Shown here piece by piece: positions 14,252 through 23,846 of a stretch of DNA of 25,445 bases. The position numbers and the translations under genes are program-made. The notes under the pieces are model-generated. The model had not been told where the DNA came from. It saw only the letters and a program-made list of their open reading frames with translations, and searched no databases. Origin of the DNA: a virus; IMG/VR virus record IMGVR_UViG_3300042291_001997, positions 1 through 25,445 of that record; one strand, given 5' to 3'. Within the stretch, counting starts at the first letter, position 1. Each line of letters begins with the position of its first letter.

Positions 14252-15583
14252 ATGGCTTCATTTAAAAGATTGAAGAGATCGGATGTAATTTCCGTTCCAT
14301 ATGTAGCCAATAAAAATTGGGTTTTTGATTATTGTCCCTATCCTAAAGACCAGTATATCAAGTTATATAAAGGAACCAACGTAACTGGTTCCTTTTCAAC
14401 TAAATACGATTCAGTCACAGAAGGCCAATATGAAAGACTAATCTATTCACAGATAAATCATTTATTTTATCAAAATTATTCATCTAGTAATCAAAATCTG
14501 AATACTAGTTCTTTAATGTCTTCATTGTATTATGATGGAGCTTCTCAAAACCGATTAACTGGATCTTACTTTAACTATAATGATAACCCGGGATTGATTA
14601 AAACTCTTCCTACGGGTGCTATGGAAGGTATTCGTATATTAGCTATAAATCAAGATTTATACGGTCAACAAGTATTACCATATGCATTTGAATTATCATC
14701 TTCTGTTTATTATGTTAAAGATGACGGTATAGGTAACTTAATTGATTATAAAAATTCTAATACCTATATTGGTAATATTTTTTATTCTCATGGTCTTGCT
14801 GTAGTAACACATCAGGATTACCAATTGATGTGGCCTTTACCCCCACTAGCCCAATTCAAACAAGTTGAATTTTTAGATACCGACAGCCCGAAATTTATAG
14901 ATTTAAATACATCTATTGATGGGAGAGGAAATCAAATCAATACTTCCTCTTTATCTGTTTCTGGTCCATATGCTGATTTATGTACTATTTCTCCTAATGG
15001 GACTTTAATCTTTAGTGGCACAGATCCTGGAATATATACTATTTATTATACTTTTGATGCCATAGTAGTTGATTCATCATGTGGACTTGAAAATAAAACC
15101 CTTACAAGTAACCAAGGAATACTAGAAATAATAATAAAATCTAATTGTGGATTTAATGTATCAGTAGTAGAGACTACTGTAACACCAGCCCCTACAACAT
15201 CCCCAACTCCTGGACCAACATCTGCCCCAACAACTTCACCAACTACTTCACCTACAACAGTACCTACTCCAGCTCCAGGATCTACCCCAACTCCAACAAC
15301 TGCTCCTACTACAGCTCCAACTACGGCGCCTACGACAGCACCTACAACTGCTCCAACAACAGTACCTACACCTTCTCCTATCCCACCAACATATACATTA
15401 TTAACAAGATGTGGTGACTTTAGTTCAGGATGGTACTGGGCAGGTGGTGGAACTTTAGGAGAAGCTGATTTAGTTTATTCAGCTGGTGGATATTGTTATT
15501 TTGTAGCTGGTTCAACAATTGATTTAACTGGATTAACCCCAATTTATGGTACTTTAAATAATTGTCCTGATGGATGCTATTAA
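14252..15583 (+). CDS. Putative tail fibre/adhesin with Pro-Thr-rich linker and C-terminal Cys module
   Basis: 443 residues. The N-terminal part (1-205) is Tyr/Ser/Asn-rich (FDYCPYPKDQYIKLYKGTNV; later LAVVTHQDYQLMWPLPP) with no recognised family. Residues about 207-305 look like an Ig-type beta domain containing ISPNGTLIFSGTDPGIYTIY. Residues about 311-380 are a PTTA/PTTS linker. Residues about 381-443 form a small module with four cysteines (starting YTLLTRCGDF, ending NCPDGCY). A related module occurs twice in the 1788-aa protein downstream. There is no signal peptide; virion fibres do not need one. It is the first of three adjacent genes with the same linker type. A perfect 10-bp inverted repeat lies 118-144 bases into the gene. 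Host-contact fibre is inference from position and composition. Confidence 0.6.
   Translation: MASFKRLKRSDVISVPYVANKNWVFDYCPYPKDQYIKLYKGTNVTGSFSTKYDSVTEGQYERLIYSQINHLFYQNYSSSNQNLNTSSLMSSLYYDGASQNRLTGSYFNYNDNPGLIKTLPTGAMEGIRILAINQDLYGQQVLPYAFELSSSVYYVKDDGIGNLIDYKNSNTYIGNIFYSHGLAVVTHQDYQLMWPLPPLAQFKQVEFLDTDSPKFIDLNTSIDGRGNQINTSSLSVSGPYADLCTISPNGTLIFSGTDPGIYTIYYTFDAIVVDSSCGLENKTLTSNQGILEIIIKSNCGFNVSVVETTVTPAPTTSPTPGPTSAPTTSPTTSPTTVPTPAPGSTPTPTTAPTTAPTTAPTTAPTTAPTTVPTPSPIPPTYTLLTRCGDFSSGWYWAGGGTLGEADLVYSAGGYCYFVAGSTIDLTGLTPIYGTLNNCPDGCY
14369..14395. other. Perfect 10-bp hairpin inside the 443-aa fibre gene
   Basis: AAAGGAACCA (14369-14378) pairs perfectly with TGGTTCCTTT (14386-14395) around the 7-base loop ACGTAAC, and one more T follows. 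The shape (A-rich 5' arm, GGAACC core, T run) resembles a small intrinsic terminator, but it lies inside an intact reading frame. It may pause RNA polymerase or protect mRNA, or be chance. Confidence 0.45.
15182..15390 (+). repeat. Pro/Thr/Ala/Ser linker-coding repeat in the 443-aa gene
   Basis: About 70 codons of period-four repeat (PTTA/PTTS units, 12 bp each, for example CCAACTACGGCG), with an internal PGSTPTPTTAP. The same unit and the PGSTP variant occur in the two following genes. Base composition is much richer in C and G than the flanking coding sequence. Confidence 0.9.
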
Positions 15584-15590
15584 TATATAA

Positions 15591-17699
15591 ATGAAACAAT
15601 TTACAGTAACACTTACAGTTAATAATAATTCAGGTCCCTTCAATATATATTATATTGATCCGACTGGAACTTATATTGCTCTGAAAGCCTCTGATTTATC
15701 TCAGGCAGTTGATATAAGTGCGGCTGAATTAACTAGTGGATTTTCAATATATACTAGTGATGATTTAACTTCTATTGATGTATTAAATAATAAACCAACT
15801 TGTAATAGTGTTGTAAGTACACCTTATCCAATACCATCACCAACACCAGCACCATCAACATCCCCAACAACCTCACCAACTACATCACCTACAACTGCTC
15901 CTACTACATCTCCTAGTACGGCCCCCACAACATCACCTACTACTTCTCCAAGTACGGCTCCAACAACATCCCCAACAACGGCTCCTAGTACGGCTCCAAC
16001 AACTGCTCCTACAACAGCACCTTCAACTACAGCTCCAACAACGGCACCTTCAACATCGCCTACAACGTCTCCTACAACGGCCCCGACAACAGCACCTTCA
16101 ACTACAGCTCCAACAACGGCGCCTTCAACAGCACCTACAACGGCTCCGAGTACGGCTCCAACTACTGCTCCAACTGCAGCCCCAGGATCAACTCCTCCTC
16201 CAACTACGGCCCCAACCGAAGCTCCGACAACGGCTCCAACTACAGCACCTACAACGGCTCCAACAACGGCTCCGAGCACAGCTCCTACAACGGCTCCAAC
16301 AACGGCACCTTCAACAGCTCCTACAACGGCTCCAACAACGGCACCTTCAACTATAGCTCCAACCACAGCACCTTCAACAGCTCCTACAACTGCTCCAACT
16401 GCAGCCCCAGGATCAACTCCTCCTCCAACCACAGCTCCAAGTACAGCTCCAACCGAATCCCCAACAACTGCACCTAGTACAGCACCTACAACTGCTCCGA
16501 CAACGGCTCCTAGTACGGCTCCAACAACGGCCCCAACTGCGGCTCCAGGATCAACTCCTCCTCCAACTACGGCCCCAACCGAAGCTCCGACAACGGCTCC
16601 AACTACAGCACCTACAACGGCTCCAACAACGGCTCCAACCACTGCACCTACATCTGCTCCAGGATCAACTCCACCTCCAACCGAAGCTCCAACTACAGCT
16701 CCAAGTACTGCTCCAACGACATCCCCTACAACAGCACCTAGTACAGCTCCTACAACGGCTCCAACCACAGCACCTAGTACGGCTCCAACCACAGCTCCAA
16801 GTACGGCTCCAACTACGGCACCTACAACGGCACCAACTACTGCTCCTACATCTGCTCCTGTAGTACCTCCATTTACAATTCCAAGTTTAACACTTGATTG
16901 TAATGTAGGAACTATGTCTGTAACAGCATCAAACGGAGTACCTCCATATCAATTTAGTGCTGATGGTGGATTTACATATTTTGAAGCTCCATCTTCGGGA
17001 AGTAGTTATTTATTTAGTGGATTATCAGGAATTATAAACCCATGGGTTAGAGATTCAACTGGAAATATATATAGATATGAACAACTTGATTGTGGTCCTC
17101 TTAATGTAACCTTTATACCATCTTATCTAACATCTAATGCAGCTGGTGAAATATTACAAGGTGCTACTTACTATACAGATGAATTCCAAGTACAAAGTTC
17201 AAAAGGCGCTACAATAAGTGTTTCAGGAATACCAGATGCTGGAACTAATACTAGCTTTATAGGATGGTCTTATTACCCATCTGATATACCTAATCCAGTT
17301 ATTACAGCAAATACAAATTATACTCATACTGTTAAAGGTAATGATTATATATATGGTATATTTAAAGATACGGATGTTACTGCAATTCCATTCTGTTTTG
17401 CTTTATCGTTAAACAATACATTAACTGATAGTGAATTAGCTTGGTTCTGTGAAGCTTGTAGAACTCCAACAAATGTATTCTTTAGTACTCCAGCATTAGC
17501 CGCTGTAGGTAATGATCCATCAAGAATTGCAGTATGGTATAAAAATCCAGAATTAACAACTCCCGCAGATAATGGATTCTATAAACAACAATCATCACCA
17601 CTTGGATCTACTATATTTATATTAAATAGTGGTGCCCCATCAGAATTTGCTAAAGTTTGTGATACATCAATAATAGAAAAAGCACCAGTTAATTGTTAA
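15591..17699 (+). CDS. Putative fibre/adhesin with about 350-residue PTTA repeat, SprB-like and InlB-repeat-like domains
   Basis: 702 residues. Residues 1-75 form a small beta domain (MKQFTVTLTVNNNSGPFNIY) of a type I recall at N-termini of phage virion proteins. Residues about 76-427 are PTTA/PSTA repeats with four PGSTPPPT interruptions. Residues about 430-500 (NGVPPYQFSADGGFTYFEA, then a GLSG turn and VRDSTGN) resemble SprB-type Ig modules of Flavobacterium gliding adhesins. Residues about 503-590 (FIGWSYYPSDIP, then NDYIYGIFKD) resemble divergent InlB B-repeat beta domains. The C-terminal 110 residues carry Cys pairs (FCEACRTPTN and KVCDT) and end in Cys. It starts seven bases after the previous gene. 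A host-surface-binding fibre is the likely role, but this is inference; the linker would hold the binding head away from the virion. Confidence 0.6.
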   Translation: MKQFTVTLTVNNNSGPFNIYYIDPTGTYIALKASDLSQAVDISAAELTSGFSIYTSDDLTSIDVLNNKPTCNSVVSTPYPIPSPTPAPSTSPTTSPTTSPTTAPTTSPSTAPTTSPTTSPSTAPTTSPTTAPSTAPTTAPTTAPSTTAPTTAPSTSPTTSPTTAPTTAPSTTAPTTAPSTAPTTAPSTAPTTAPTAAPGSTPPPTTAPTEAPTTAPTTAPTTAPTTAPSTAPTTAPTTAPSTAPTTAPTTAPSTIAPTTAPSTAPTTAPTAAPGSTPPPTTAPSTAPTESPTTAPSTAPTTAPTTAPSTAPTTAPTAAPGSTPPPTTAPTEAPTTAPTTAPTTAPTTAPTTAPTSAPGSTPPPTEAPTTAPSTAPTTSPTTAPSTAPTTAPTTAPSTAPTTAPSTAPTTAPTTAPTTAPTSAPVVPPFTIPSLTLDCNVGTMSVTASNGVPPYQFSADGGFTYFEAPSSGSSYLFSGLSGIINPWVRDSTGNIYRYEQLDCGPLNVTFIPSYLTSNAAGEILQGATYYTDEFQVQSSKGATISVSGIPDAGTNTSFIGWSYYPSDIPNPVITANTNYTHTVKGNDYIYGIFKDTDVTAIPFCFALSLNNTLTDSELAWFCEACRTPTNVFFSTPALAAVGNDPSRIAVWYKNPELTTPADNGFYKQQSSPLGSTIFILNSGAPSEFAKVCDTSIIEKAPVNC
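16182..16273 (+). repeat. 92-bp perfect direct repeat, copy 1
   Basis: Begins CCAGGATCAACTCC and ends ACAACGGCTCC. It is identical, base for base, to 16545-16636. The spacing between copies is 363 bp, a multiple of three, so recombination between them would remove or add exactly 121 codons in frame. Confidence 0.95.
16545..16636 (+). repeat. 92-bp perfect direct repeat, copy 2
   Basis: Identical to 16182-16273; the copies diverge on both flanks (CC versus CT before the block, GAG versus AAC after it). It encodes the [19 protein letters not shown] block. A related but diverged block lies between the copies (about 16398-16440). Confidence 0.95.
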
Positions 17700-17714
17700 T
17701 AAAAACATAAAAAA

Positions 17715-20700
17715 ATGCCATTAAGTTATTCTACAACTATTTCTTATTTAAGTTCAGATTTTAGTTTTGCTAATGCCCAATCCATTAATGGAACTAATAA
17801 ATATAATAATAAGAAAAAAGAATTAGTAGTTACTTCAGGGGCTGCTACTTATGGATATGTTAAACTTCAAATAACTCTTACAGGGAGTAACATTACATAT
17901 GGTGCTGTTACTTTTTCAACATCTAATGAGTCTCCAATATCAATAGGTCAAAATTTAGATGATGTTTTTTATCCATGTGCTTTAGGTAGTCCTAATGGTT
18001 ATGAGATTTCTTTACAAGTTGGAGTTCCTAAAACAATATATGTTATTGTTAATCCTAATTCAAATAAAACAACTAAAAAAATAAATGTTGTAACAGCTGT
18101 TGGAGTAAGTACTGCATCTGCAGCATCAATTGATATTCAATATGATTGTATAGTTCCATTATATGAATACTCTGCTGGAGTTCACGTATATTCTCCATAC
18201 GATGCTGCTAATTCATCTAAGCTAACAGCTAAATTATATTCAAAAACACAAATAGGAACAGGAGATTCAAACCCATTCCCAGTAAACCATAAATTGTGGG
18301 CTTTACCTGATTTTAGTCATCCGGCGTACCCATATTATTATTTAATTCCTAGTAATAATAATGTTATTAAAATAGGAGGTCCGTATGATAGAACATTTGG
18401 TACTAAACTTTATTATAGAGCAACCCATAGTGGGTGGGCTGCTCTTTGGGGTAAAGATCCTTCCGTAATAGTAGAAGAAGAAGGTCCTAATGATTATGAA
18501 GGAGCTACTACTGTTTCTGCATGTGTATTTCCATTAATGACTGATATAGGAAAAGTTAAAAGTTGGTTACATAAATCAACCTATACAAGACCTACATTAT
18601 ACCAATATATTACAGGGTATCATAGTTCTGTTAAAGAAGCTTCTAATGATAATTTCTTTGCTAAGTGGGTATTTAGTAATAATAAATTTCATGCTCTTAC
18701 TGGTAGACGTCATAATATGCTTAGGTTATCCTCTGGATATAAAAGAGGGTTTGCTTCTGATGTGGCTTTTAGTAATAATTTTGAAGTATCACATTTAATA
18801 GCTGGGGGTGTAGCTTTAGGAGCCGCAGCTTGGGCTGGAGTATTATTAGCTAAAGCATTAACATCAACAACAGCTGCTACAATTTCATCAGGAGCTGTTT
18901 CACTTTCATCGGCGGGTGCTGCTGCCGCAGGAGCTAATATTATTGCTAGTTTAACTTCTACTCTTACAGTTGCTGGAATATCTTCAGCCGGAGCTGCGGC
19001 AGGTTCAGCAACAATCCCTATAATATATAGTACAGTATCATCAATTGGTGCTCCTTTAAATACAGTAGTTTTATTTAATTCCTTAGGACAAATAACAGCT
19101 ACATATGCAGGAACTACTACTTATGCTAATATTATAACAGCGGGTCCTGGCTCTACAGCAATTAATGGTGGATTTTTAAATTTAGCTACAGCTCAATCAT
19201 CTACAGCAGCATCATCTGCTATAAAGGCAGGAACTCAATTAGCTACAACTTCAGGTACTTCGGCCTCCTCTGCTGCTACTATAGGTGGTATTGCTGCTTC
19301 TACAGTTGTTCTTATAGTAGTATTAATTATAATAGCAATTATTATATTAGTTCAACTATTAGAAAAAATTGAAACGATAATTAAAGAACAATGTAAAGAT
19401 TTTATTTTTCATTATAATACAAATCCATATATTGAAATCGGAGATTCTTTAAAATTCAAAAACAGAGATCTTGATCTTAGTAATGGTATAAAATGGTACT
19501 TCCCAGAAGATCCTTCTGGATCATTTACTCAAACAAATAATGGGTATTATTGTGACGGAGTTTATTTCTATCAACAATCTGGTGGTGTTGTTACATCAAA
19601 AACTTTATCTTATTCTGACTATACTTTAATTTCAGAAGATCCTAAAATAATAACAGCATATGAAGATTCATTAGATGTTTTAAACCCAACAACAATAATT
19701 GAAATTGATAAACTTCATTTATTACCATATGCATCTGGTGAACCTATAGCATATACAGCTTCAGTACCCATATATTTTAGTGACTATCATGAAAATATAA
19801 TTAATATATATCCTAAAGGTGGATTACAAACTAAAGTTGAAACAAAAGTAATGTATGTTAAAGCTAGTTCATCTTTTAGTTATACTAGTTCGGCTGCTGC
19901 CAACTCATCATCTCTTGACTACTTAAGTTCATCATTAATTCCTTATGTATCATCATCGCAACCCACATACTATCCAGTATACCCTTCAGGATCCACACCA
20001 CCAACTCCTATAAGTATAACATCTTCATTTTTCCCATTAATACCAATAATTGTAACTGGTTCTGTTGATATAAATGTAACATCTTCATTAGACGCCTTTT
20101 TTACTCATGAATTAAAAATTGAAGATGTTCCTACCCCTGTTAATTTATATTATGATAATACTAGTAGTATTAATGTAAGTATAGGGAAAAAACTATATTA
20201 TGATAATTATGGATATTTTGGTGCATTAGATGGATACTATTCAATTTCTGGTTCCGAAGTTCCAGGAATATCAGGATCGTCAAATTATAGAGTATTTTTC
20301 CAAACTAGTAAAGGAATAATAGATAATATATATTATATGCCTTTATCAAGTAGTACAACTGTTACTGATCAAGCAAGTAGTTCTTATTCATTAGTTACTA
20401 ATTATAAAGATTATTCAAGTAACTGGTATTTAATAAATAATGATATAGATCGATTAAATACAGATTATGCTAATATTGTTAGTTATAGTTCTATGGGACA
20501 GATGTATCCAGAATATATAACATCTAGTTCTCTTCTTAGTTCGGATGATGGGCATCCGATTACTTCTAGAAGAGGATTTATATCAGGAAGTATGACTGGT
20601 ACTGGTTCATGTAGTAATTATTTTTATTTATATGATTCTAATTTTTCAACTGCTAGTATAAATGAAGCACCTTCATCTAATTTTTATAAACCGTGGATTC

Positions 20701-23081
20701 CATTAAATGAAAGACCAGCTTTCTCATATTCTCCAACATCATCCGTTCAGATAGATATAGAAGAAGTATGTTTTACATCTGGATCAGATCCTTCAAGTTC
20801 ATTATATGGATTTAACATATATTCACGAAGTGATAACTTTTTACGTTCTTTTGGTACTGATATTTACTTAACTACAAATATATATAAATCAGGAAGTGGA
20901 TCACCTATAATTTATAATATAACAGCATCAGATGCATCTCTTACAGTAAATTATACTTCAAGTTTATCTTACATGACATTTGGTGGAGGATATGAAAGTA
21001 GATGGTTTGTTCCTTATGATAACCGAGTATCAGTAAATGATACTGTAACATCAATTACAATATCATCATTATCTACAGGTAGTGCAGTTTGTAAAACAAG
21101 CTATACTACTGGAAGTTTTACTGGTTGTGATAATATAACTCCTGCTCCAACAACGGCTCCGAGCACAGCTCCTACAACAGCTCCTACAACCTCACCAACA
21201 GCAGCACCTAGTACTGCCCCTACAACTGCTCCAACAACTTCTCCTACTATAGTTCCTACACCTTCACCGGTAACACCTGCTCCAACTACGGCTCCTACAA
21301 CATCTCCTACTACTGCCCCAACAACGGCTCCGACTACGGCACCTACTTCGTCACCTGTTACAATAGCTCCGACAACAGCACCTAGTACAGCACCTACAAC
21401 ATCTCCAACTACTGAACCTACACCTTCTCCAACCGAAGCTCCAACAACGGCCCCAAGTACTGCTCCTACAACCGCACCTACTACGGCTCCAACAACAGCT
21501 CCAACAACTGCTCCTAGTACCGCTCCAACAACGGCTCCAAGTACTGCACCTACAACGGTTCCTACCCCATCTCCAGTTTTACCTCCTTCCAGTGCCTTAA
21601 CCATGTGGGCTAGAACAGATTCAGGAACTAGTCCATTACAAGGATGGGCTACATATTTTGAGTCATGTGCTGGAACAGGCACAGAAATTACAGTATTTGT
21701 AAATGCTACTGGGTATACTTCAATATTTGATGCTTATACTGATGGTAAAGCTTTATATACTACTAATACTCTTACAACATTATATGCTGGTGGAGGAACT
21801 TACTTTAAAGCAGTAGCAAACAATTCATCTGGTGATTATTTTACAATAGATAACTCAGGATTTATTGCTATTTATAGTGCTTGTAGTACACCTGCTCCAT
21901 CAATGGCTCCAACCACAGCTCCAACAACAGCACCTAGTACCGCTCCTACAACATCTCCAACTACACAACCAACTCCAGCTCCTACTCTATTATATTATTA
22001 TGCATTAAGTACTTGTTGGGGACAAGAAACATCTATTGCTATTGGTAGAAGTATTTCTTCATCATATGGAACTGCAGTGTTCCTTATAGGTGGAATATGT
22101 TTCCAATCTAATGGAATAACATCAGGACCAAGTTATGATGTTGATTTAGATTCATACTCAATCATGTCTGGAGGATGTAGTGATGCATCATGTAACCCAC
22201 CAACTCCAGCTCCTACAACGGCTCCAACAACGGCTCCTAGTACCGCACCTACAACATCTCCAACCACCCAACCAACTCCATCTCCTACTCCAGTATATTA
22301 TTATAATGCTACTAGATGTCATGATAGTGTAAATCAAATTGTATATGGTGGAACTAATTACTTTGGTACAGGTACAGTAGTAATATCAGGAGGCACAACA
22401 TATTGTTACACAATCCAAAATGAAGTAATCCCTCAATCATATGATGATACAGTAGGAGCTTCAGTAGCTAATTGTAATAATGCATCTTGTTATGTAACTC
22501 CTGCACCTACATTTGCTCCAACCACATCACCAACTACAGCTCCAACCACATCCCCAACTCCTAATCCAACACCTGCTCCAACCACATCGCCAACAACAGC
22601 TCCAACTACACAACCAACCCCATCTCCAACTACGTCTCCAACTACGTCTCCAACCCCTAACCCAACACCTGCTCCAACAACATCACCAACACCTTCACCA
22701 GTAGCAACACCAGCACCTACAACTTCTCCAACTACATCACCTACAACATCTCCAACTGAAGCTCCAACTTCATCGCCTACTACATCTCCAACTACTGAAC
22801 CAACTCCAAACCCAACCCCATCACCAACTACTGAACCAACTCCAAACCCAACCCCATCGCCAACTACTGAACCAACTCCAAACCCAACACCTAATCCAAC
22901 ACCATCTCCAGTAACACCAACATGTTATACATTTACTAATGATTCATATAGTCCTAGTACTTATGTTGAGTATGTATCATGTGCTGGAAGTTTTACAACA
23001 ACAAATTTAGCTATAAATGATAGTATTTGTGCTCAATCAGTCTTAGTAGGTTCATTATCACAAGGAGTAACATGTATATAA
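17715..23081 (+). CDS. Giant putative tail fibre/adhesin: internal hydrophobic segments, four PT linkers, Cys modules
   Basis: 1788 residues. Residues 1-150 are an Ig-like beta region. Residues about 150-350 are aromatic-rich ([20 protein letters not shown]) and unrecognised. Residues about 361-381 ([20 protein letters not shown]) and 530-549 ([20 protein letters not shown]) are hydrophobic enough to span a membrane, separated by an Ala/Gly/Ser/Thr-rich stretch. Residues about 560-1140 are Ser/Tyr-rich beta structure. Then PT linkers (about 1142-1292, 1392-1424, 1494-1526, 1595-1736) alternate with small modules (1293-1391, 1425-1493, 1527-1595, 1737-1788). Modules two and three share YYY...C, an internal C and a final CxxxxC-type ending with the C-terminus of the 443-aa protein. 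It starts 16 bases after the previous stop behind an A-rich leader. Largest gene in the window; a host-recognition fibre is inferred. Confidence 0.6.
21138..21590 (+). repeat. PTTA repeat array 1 of the 1788-aa gene
   Basis: About 151 codons of [12 protein letters not shown] units with occasional [16 protein letters not shown] and [11 protein letters not shown] variants. It is GC-rich against its surroundings and separates the Ser/Tyr-rich region from the first Cys-containing module. Confidence 0.93.
21888..21985 (+). repeat. Short PTTA linker 2 of the 1788-aa gene
   Basis: About 33 codons ([20 protein letters not shown], then [13 protein letters not shown]). It is nearly the same at protein level as the linker at 22194-22293, so linker plus following module look like one duplicated unit. 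Confidence 0.9.
22194..22293 (+). repeat. Short PTTA linker 3 of the 1788-aa gene
   Basis: About 33 codons ([20 protein letters not shown], then [12 protein letters not shown]), matching linker 2 almost residue for residue while differing in several synonymous bases. Confidence 0.9.
22497..22922 (+). repeat. PT repeat array 4 of the 1788-aa gene
   Basis: About 142 codons. Its flavour differs from the other arrays: mostly [16 protein letters not shown] and [12 protein letters not shown] units with Asn, Glu and Gln, and few PTTA units. It leads to the final 52-residue Cys-containing module. Confidence 0.92.
22788..22895 (+). repeat. Three tandem 36-bp units within array 4
   Basis: Units at 22788-22823, 22824-22859 and 22860-22895 encode [12 protein letters not shown]. 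The first two differ only at the last base (TCA/TCG); the third matches for about 29 bases and then drifts (PTPN). This near-identity points to a recent tandem duplication. Confidence 0.92.
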
Positions 23082-23083
23082 TA

Positions 23084-23091
23084 TATTTATA
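23084..23091 (+). promoter_or_regulatory. TATTTATA element upstream of the 23096 gene
   Basis: TATTTATA then ACAT and the ATG at 23096. It occupies the 14-base gap after the giant fibre gene. Fourth copy of the element in a gene gap. As with the copy at 4147, the very short distance to the ATG is awkward for a -10 element. Confidence 0.3.
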
Positions 23092-23095
23092 ACAT

Positions 23096-23410
23096 ATGCC
23101 AGCAATAGTAAATAAAAACAATTTTAAATTATCATTCACTAACGAACATACAGTGTATGAAAATTACATTACTGCTCAAATTAAAGAAAACGAATTTAAT
23201 TTATCATATAATCCATCTTTACGTCAGACAGGCTCAAATGCTTATTCTGAAATAAAAAATTATGCTACTGGTTCTGATTTTGCACCATACGCAACAACAC
23301 TTGGATTATATAATGACGATAATGAATTATTAATGGTTGCAAAATTTGGTCAGCCTGTTCCTATATCTGTAGAAACAGACATGACCTTCCTAATACGTTA
23401 TGATACCTAA
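23096..23410 (+). CDS. Stand-alone copy of the structural C-terminal module
   Basis: 104 residues. It contains YITAQIKENEFNLSYNPS and, further on, ATTLGLYNDDNELLMVAKFG, ending FLIRYDT. Order and spacing match the C-terminal module (residues about 250-333) of the 333-aa protein at 13237-14238, which has NEFNYTTNPS, TVGMYNDNNELVAVAK and IRVKLDY. It is therefore a diverged paralogue of that module, made as a separate small protein. It closes the fibre cluster and overlaps the next gene by 11 bases. It could be a fibre-docking or fibre-capping subunit; the sequence shows the homology but not the role. Confidence 0.65.
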   Translation: MPAIVNKNNFKLSFTNEHTVYENYITAQIKENEFNLSYNPSLRQTGSNAYSEIKNYATGSDFAPYATTLGLYNDDNELLMVAKFGQPVPISVETDMTFLIRYDT

Positions 23411-23846
23411 TTGGTTATATTTTAAAAAACAGATCACTACGATTGATCAATTTCCCGAAAACACATTTGGTTTTATTTACAAAATCAGTAATATTGATAC
23501 CAATAAAATATATATTGGTAAAAAATCACTATACCACAATAAAAAACATAAGCTGACCAAAAAGCAACTAGACGAACAGCCAGTTACTCGTGGTAGAAAA
23601 TCTACTCATGAGATACTACACGTAGAATCTGATTGGAAAACTTATTATGGTTCGTCTAAAGAACTAGCAGCAGATATTAAATTACTTGGAATTGAAAAAT
23701 TTCGTCGTGAAATTATATATCTAGCTAAAGGTAAAAAACAATTGACATATCTTGAATTAAAAGCACAATTCGAATACGATGTGCTAGAAATTAGTTCATA
23801 TAACGATAATATAGCTGGTAAATTTTTCCGCAAGGATTTGATATAG
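23400..23846 (+). CDS. GIY-YIG-type endonuclease-like protein
   Basis: 148 residues. The nuclease motif is at residues 24-40: GFIYKIS (G-F-I-Y in place of G-I-Y), then KIYIGKK, with eleven residues between the two tyrosines, as in GIY-YIG enzymes. Further conserved-looking parts are SDWKTYYGSSKELAADI (about 78-94), FRREIIYLAKGKKQLTYLEL and QFEYDVL, where a glutamate (E119 or E125) could be the metal ligand. The call is a phage DNA endonuclease, either free-standing homing-type (Seg-like) or involved in host DNA degradation. It differs from T4 DenA in motif position. The ATG overlaps the previous gene by 11 bases, so it is read from the end of the late cluster. Moderate confidence in the fold, low in the biological role. 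Confidence 0.6.
   Translation: MIPNWLYFKKQITTIDQFPENTFGFIYKISNIDTNKIYIGKKSLYHNKKHKLTKKQLDEQPVTRGRKSTHEILHVESDWKTYYGSSKELAADIKLLGIEKFRREIIYLAKGKKQLTYLELKAQFEYDVLEISSYNDNIAGKFFRKDLI

What the first reader, a model, noticed from the sequence alone, without database searches (positions are those of the whole stretch)
16182..16636. Perfect 92-bp in-frame direct repeat inside the 702-aa fibre gene
Bases 16182-16273 and 16545-16636 are identical, in a region where other repeat units differ by synonymous changes. The spacing of 363 bp is a multiple of three. This indicates a recent duplication or gene conversion, and recombination here would change linker length by 121 codons without a frameshift. 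It may be a length-variation mechanism for host-contact fibres.
Basis: partly seen in the sequence, partly recalled or inferred. Interest (0 to 1): 0.62.

Follow-up and report, generated by a model that had tools for sequence, protein, structure and literature searches.

The report
Recombining linker repeat in phage fibre
The 92-base repeat is real: it is a fresh copying scar inside a long threonine/proline/alanine spacer of a virus surface protein, and in related viruses these spacers change length and repeat motif quickly, while all the spacers of one virus share one motif.

Summary
Observation confirmed. Bases 16182-16273 and 16545-16636 are identical (92 bp, offset 363, in frame). With the protein fixed and synonymous codons shuffled, no repeat exceeded 44 bp in 2000 trials; shuffling whole repeat units gave at most 62. 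It is therefore a DNA copying event. The tract is bounded, not a 363-bp tandem duplication, and copy 1 looks like a mosaic of copies 2 and 3.

Context: a 343-codon (P-T-T-A)n spacer in an uncultivated T4-like phage, related to Flavobacterium phage immuto in its baseplate genes. It lies in an ~8.3-kb spacer/domain module between two halves of a gene that is single in relatives. A second assembly carries the same array base for base.

Relatives partly support the length-variation idea. Two near-clonal contig pairs differ only by an in-frame spacer indel (48 bp, 12 bp), and the homologous 702-gene spacer spans 117-490 codons. No length variant of this array itself was found.

Beyond the finding: each genome uses one spacer motif in all its spacers, while relatives with nearly identical core genes use others. 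Cause unproven. New variant of a known kind.

The parts
15591..17699 (+). 702-aa ORF: N-terminal domain, spacer, C-terminal domain (probable virion adhesin or fibre protein)
   Evidence: no Pfam/PHROG match
15591..15833 (+). N-terminal domain (81 aa), conserved in 10 related lineages
15834..16862 (+). 343-codon T/P/A spacer, repeat unit P-T-T-A / P-S-T-A (12 bp); 67 xTAP/xTSP units, no TxTP unit
16182..16273 (+). 92-bp exact repeat, copy 1
16545..16636 (+). 92-bp exact repeat, copy 2
16164..16204 (+). 41 bp identical to 16389-16429; overlaps the left end of the 92-bp repeat, so copy 1 is mosaic (shared core 16182-16204)
16389..16429 (+). partner of the 41-bp exact repeat (second GSTPPP unit)
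16863..17696 (+). C-terminal domain (278 aa), 82-88% identical in three related lineages
15170..15379 (+). 70-codon spacer of the upstream 443-aa gene, same motif
21132..22922 (+). stretch of the 1788-aa gene holding further spacers of the same motif, separated by small Cys-containing domains
14822..23129 (+). ~8.3-kb spacer/domain module between two halves of a gene that is single in L074 and phage immuto
23096..23410 (+). 104-aa ORF, C-terminal half of the split gene
15824..16792 (-). antisense 322-aa open frame, the mirror image of the repeat (GAVV)n; judged spurious

Best explanation
The repeat is the trace of a recent recombination event (gene conversion or unequal exchange between mispaired repeats) inside a recombination-prone, in-frame spacer array. 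The array is a (P-T-T-A)n spacer, probably an extended or flexible tether, joining the conserved N-terminal domain of a 702-aa virion protein to its C-terminal domain in an uncultivated T4-like phage related to Flavobacterium phages. The array is a 12-bp codon-periodic repeat with interrupting GSTPPP units, so exchange between mispaired copies stays in frame. Such events copy short DNA tracts, sometimes change spacer length, and help refresh the repeat motif. Shown: the exact tract, its improbability, its bounded mosaic structure, excess exact repeats in relatives, and natural in-frame indels in sister spacers. Inferred: recombination rather than slippage, the tether function, surface exposure and host contact.
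For: Exact 92-bp tract, 0 of 2000 in two nulls. The duplicated tract is bounded; copy 1 shares 41 bp leftward with copy 2 and 92 bp rightward with copy 3 around a 23-bp core, which fits conversion or unequal exchange. Exact repeats beyond both nulls also occur in relatives: 146, 113, 90, 84 and 74 bp. Contigs with no substitution over ~10.9 kb and 18.3 kb differ only by a 48-bp and a 12-bp in-frame spacer change. Thr codon ACG is 23% in this spacer but 1-4% in the domains of the three genes, consistent with propagation of DNA units.
Against: Only one event is seen in this array, and the one other contig holding it is identical. The 41-bp match alone barely exceeds its null. Fold prediction of the C-terminal domain is poor (pLDDT 51), so the function is not tested. 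The four-copy 48-bp run in L012/L022 is 194 bp of perfect repeat, longer than k=127, so its copy number may be inexact.
Confidence: 0.75

Rival explanations
1. Replication slippage or tandem duplication: a 363-bp unit was duplicated head to tail and the rest of the unit then diverged or was rearranged.
For: Offset 363 is a multiple of 3; slippage-like tandem changes are real in sister spacers (48 bp, 12 bp).
Against: Sequence after the tract is at background identity at offset 363, although it should be as young as the 92 bp; the left flank matches copy 2 rather than copy 3.
Confidence: 0.15
2. Assembly artefact: the tract was duplicated or collapsed by the assembler.
For: The record is a metagenome contig; repeat arrays are error-prone in short-read assemblies.
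Against: The array is identical in a contig of metagenome 3300042997; the repeat is shorter than the inferred k of 127; the unit is kept in frame. It was not established that the two assemblies are fully independent.
Confidence: 0.05
3. A dedicated length-switching (contingency-type) device that tunes fibre reach in this phage.
For: In-frame length variants exist in sister spacers; 702-gene spacers range from 117 to 490 codons.
Against: The length is identical in the two contigs with this array; with the same C-terminal domain it stays within 315-371 codons; the 443-gene spacer stays within 69-90 codons across lineages with different motifs; no sign of regulation.
Confidence: 0.1

Closest known systems
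T4 gp37 tail-fibre adhesin, host range expanded by duplications of a small domain (recalled work of Tetart and colleagues; cited in papers found, not read here)
   Same: In-frame duplication between short repeats inside a tail-fibre gene of a T4-like phage
   Different: There the duplicated element is the receptor-binding domain; here it is low-complexity spacer between domains, and no host-range effect is known
Collagen-like (G-X-Y)n segments of phage tail fibres (recalled)
   Same: Codon-periodic spacer repeats in fibre proteins, able to vary in length in frame
   Different: The unit is P-T-T-A, not G-X-Y, and lacks the Gly periodicity of a collagen triple helix
Pro/Thr-rich interdomain linkers of bacterial glycoside hydrolases and adhesins (recalled)
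   Same: T/P-rich tethers between small extracellular domains
   Different: Here in a phage module, with one motif shared by three adjacent genes and turned over between close relatives
Tail-fibre region of Flavobacterium phage vB_FspM_immuto (MW353176)
   Same: Syntenic baseplate genes; 44.8% identity of the gp6-like protein
   Different: No T/P spacer in the fibre-region proteins examined, and the gene that flanks the module here is uninterrupted

Membership tests
T4-like (contractile-tailed) phage related to Immutovirus | gp25 baseplate wedge and gp6-like protein in syntenic order | tested here: met
   PF04965 E 7.9e-14; 44.8% over 100% to the immuto baseplate wedge protein; gene order
T4-like (contractile-tailed) phage related to Immutovirus | T4-type portal protein in a contig of the same virus | tested here: met
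   PF07230 E 1.1e-68 in the contig of L023, which is 100% identical to the window over 6747 bp
Known tail-fibre protein family | match to a described fibre or adhesin profile | tested here: not met
   no Pfam or PHROG match for the 702-aa protein or its neighbours
Collagen-like fibre repeat | G-X-Y periodicity | tested here: not met
   unit is P-T-T-A, read directly
Diversity-generating retroelement | reverse transcriptase gene | tested here: not met
   none among the 17 ORFs of the window scanned with Pfam; the window is a genome fragment
Diversity-generating retroelement | template and variable repeat differing at adenines | tested here: not met
   the two copies are identical
Repeat-mediated length-variable locus | natural length variants of this array | tested here: inconclusive
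   none for this array; present in sister spacers

The most novel reading that the evidence does not exclude
Each phage genome of this group keeps one spacer 'dialect' (P-T-T-A, (P-T)n, T-V-T-P, T-A-T-P, T-N-T-P, T-rich and others) in all spacers of all its fibre-module genes, and switches it as a whole. Dialects differ between relatives with 92-96% identical core protein and agree between more distant ones. This would be concerted evolution of spacers across genes, driven by exchange between genes (the 92-bp tract being one such copying event) or by selection on a shared property such as glycosylation.
Probability: 0.35. Interest if true: 0.68.

Novelty: new variant of a known kind. Interest (0 to 1): 0.47.

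Why it matters
Spacers between domains are usually ignored because they cannot be aligned. Here they turn over faster than the domains, keep the reading frame, change length in near-clonal phages, and stay uniform within a genome. That makes a multi-gene concerted-evolution process in phages measurable, and shows one way in which the length of a phage surface tether, and the domains it carries, could change without breaking the protein.

Tried and rejected
Simple 363-bp tandem duplication: rejected by the fall of identity after 16279. Exchange between genes as the full cause of the uniform motif: only partly supported. 702/1788 sharing in the window exceeds a synonymous-codon null (29 shared 21-mers against 4.8, 0 of 200) but only weakly a stricter unit-shuffle null (6 of 300); L042 passes both, most 443-gene comparisons do not. 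Hydroxylation or glycosylation as the reason for the motif: inconclusive. Prolyl-hydroxylase-like genes in 3 of 10 and GT2 glycosyltransferase matches in 5 of 10 related records, all fragments. Structure of the C-terminal domain: low confidence, not searched further. No PDB relative by sequence (best hit E 0.58). No relative of the 1788-aa N-part in cultured phages or in genome contigs, none of the 702 C-terminal domain in cultured phages. Paper searches found no description of such spacers in phages in the held library.

Full report
WHAT WAS CHECKED. The two stretches are identical over 92 bp, 363 bp apart and in frame. The array codes for P-T-T-A / P-S-T-A units, so amino-acid repetition is expected; the question is whether the DNA is more alike than the protein demands. 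Shuffling synonymous codons with the protein fixed gave a longest repeat of 22.9 bp on average and 44 at most in 2000 trials; permuting whole P-delimited DNA units among equal peptides gave 32.2 and 62. The repeat is therefore a copying event at DNA level.

ANATOMY. At offset 363 the sequences are alike from about 16141 to 16279 and then fall to background, so a short tract was copied, not a 363-bp unit. The array holds four GSTPPP units (16182, 16407, 16545, 16659). The first shares 41 bp on its left side with the second and 92 bp on its right side with the third, with a common core at 16182-16204. That mosaic is what conversion or unequal exchange between mispaired units would leave. The 41-bp match alone is near the top of its null, so the mosaic reading is likely but not certain. 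The antisense frame 15824-16792 is the mirror image of the repeat.

ARTEFACT. The window is a 25,445-base IMG/VR record. A contig of metagenome 3300042997 is identical to it over 14,574 bp including the array, and a second contig of that metagenome is identical over 6,747 bp. The two overlap by exactly 127 bp, which suggests k=127; a 92-bp repeat is below that. Exact repeats longer than k would tend to be lost or miscounted, so longer copies may be under-recorded in all these contigs (inference).

SURROUNDINGS. The window carries a gp25-like protein, a gp6-like protein, a SegE-like GIY-YIG endonuclease and a DnaG-like primase. Cultured relatives by the gp6-like protein are Flavobacterium phage immuto (44.8%) and Microcystis phage Mel-JY01 (42.5%); neither has T/P spacers in the proteins examined. 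The N-part of the 443-aa gene and the 104-aa gene at 23096 match the two halves of a single gene in L074, and the 104-aa gene matches the C-terminal part of immuto QQO92083. The ~8.3 kb between them, holding the 702-aa and 1788-aa genes, is thus a module placed in, or grown within, an ancestral gene.

RELATIVES. Loci sharing the 702 C-terminal domain or the 443 N-part were compared. Near-clonal pairs are informative. L010 and L012 show no substitution over ~10.9 kb and one 48-bp in-frame difference in a spacer of the 1788-gene homologue. L066 and L067 show no substitution over 18.3 kb and one 12-bp in-frame tandem duplication in a proline-rich spacer. Other near-clonal pairs, including the window's, show none. 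So in two of about eight cases the only difference is an in-frame spacer length change. The first case involves 194 bp of perfect repeat, so its copy number may be inexact.

LENGTH. The spacer after the 702 N-terminal domain spans 117-490 codons in ten lineages (coefficient of variation 44%), while the 443-gene spacer spans 69-90 (9%) (lengths, statistics). With the window's C-terminal domain the 702 spacer is 315-371 codons. Length variation across lineages is therefore real for this spacer; for this array within a population it is not shown.

MOTIF UNIFORMITY. Window: 119 xTAP/xTSP units and no TxTP unit in three genes; L020 and L024 show the reverse, 0 against 128 and 0 against 106. Over 16 representative loci, spacers of different genes of one genome are much more alike than spacers of different genomes (tripeptide cosine 0.78 against 0.34; 0 of 2000 label shuffles). 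This is not simply kinship: window and L038 are 96% identical in the first 190 residues of the 443 protein but share almost no spacer motif (0.28 and 0.03), while window and L041 at 80% share it (0.92 and 0.97). L043 shares the window's 1788 N-part at 95% but none of its motif. Whole-module transfer explains some of these cases; L043 seems to need replacement of the spacers around a retained domain. Sharing of DNA between genes exceeds a synonymous null in several genomes but weakly under the stricter null, so the cause stays open.

MECHANISM AND CONFIDENCE. Most likely: recombination between mispaired spacer repeats (0.75), in a spacer that probably acts as a tether. Slippage or tandem duplication 0.15, contingency-type device 0.1, artefact 0.05; these overlap in part. 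The function of the protein is inferred from position only.

VERDICT. The repeat by itself is an ordinary product of recombination in a repeat array. The wider pattern, fast-changing spacers that stay uniform within a genome, is a new variant of a known kind and worth testing.

Noticed in passing
14252-14822 and 23096-23410: Two halves of a gene that is single in L074 and phage immuto are separated by the ~8.3-kb spacer/domain module.
   Followed up: yes
15170-15379, 15834-16862, 21132-22922: All spacers of three adjacent genes use one motif; relatives with similar domains use other motifs.
   Followed up: partly
L020 6595, 7309, 12547; L024 6661, 7375, 12553: A rare interruption (GT-I/V-x-GAT) recurs in the spacers of all three genes in each of two genomes.
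   Followed up: partly
L024 13504 and 13867: Identical 90-bp spacer stretches 363 bp apart in the 1788-gene homologue; they seem to flank a small domain, as if a domain was inserted or duplicated through its spacers.
   Followed up: no
23400-23846: SegE-like GIY-YIG endonuclease gene shortly downstream of the variable module; it could promote exchange nearby.
   Followed up: no
L066 and L067, near 14225: 12-bp in-frame tandem duplication in a proline-rich spacer is the only difference in 18.3 kb.
   Followed up: yes
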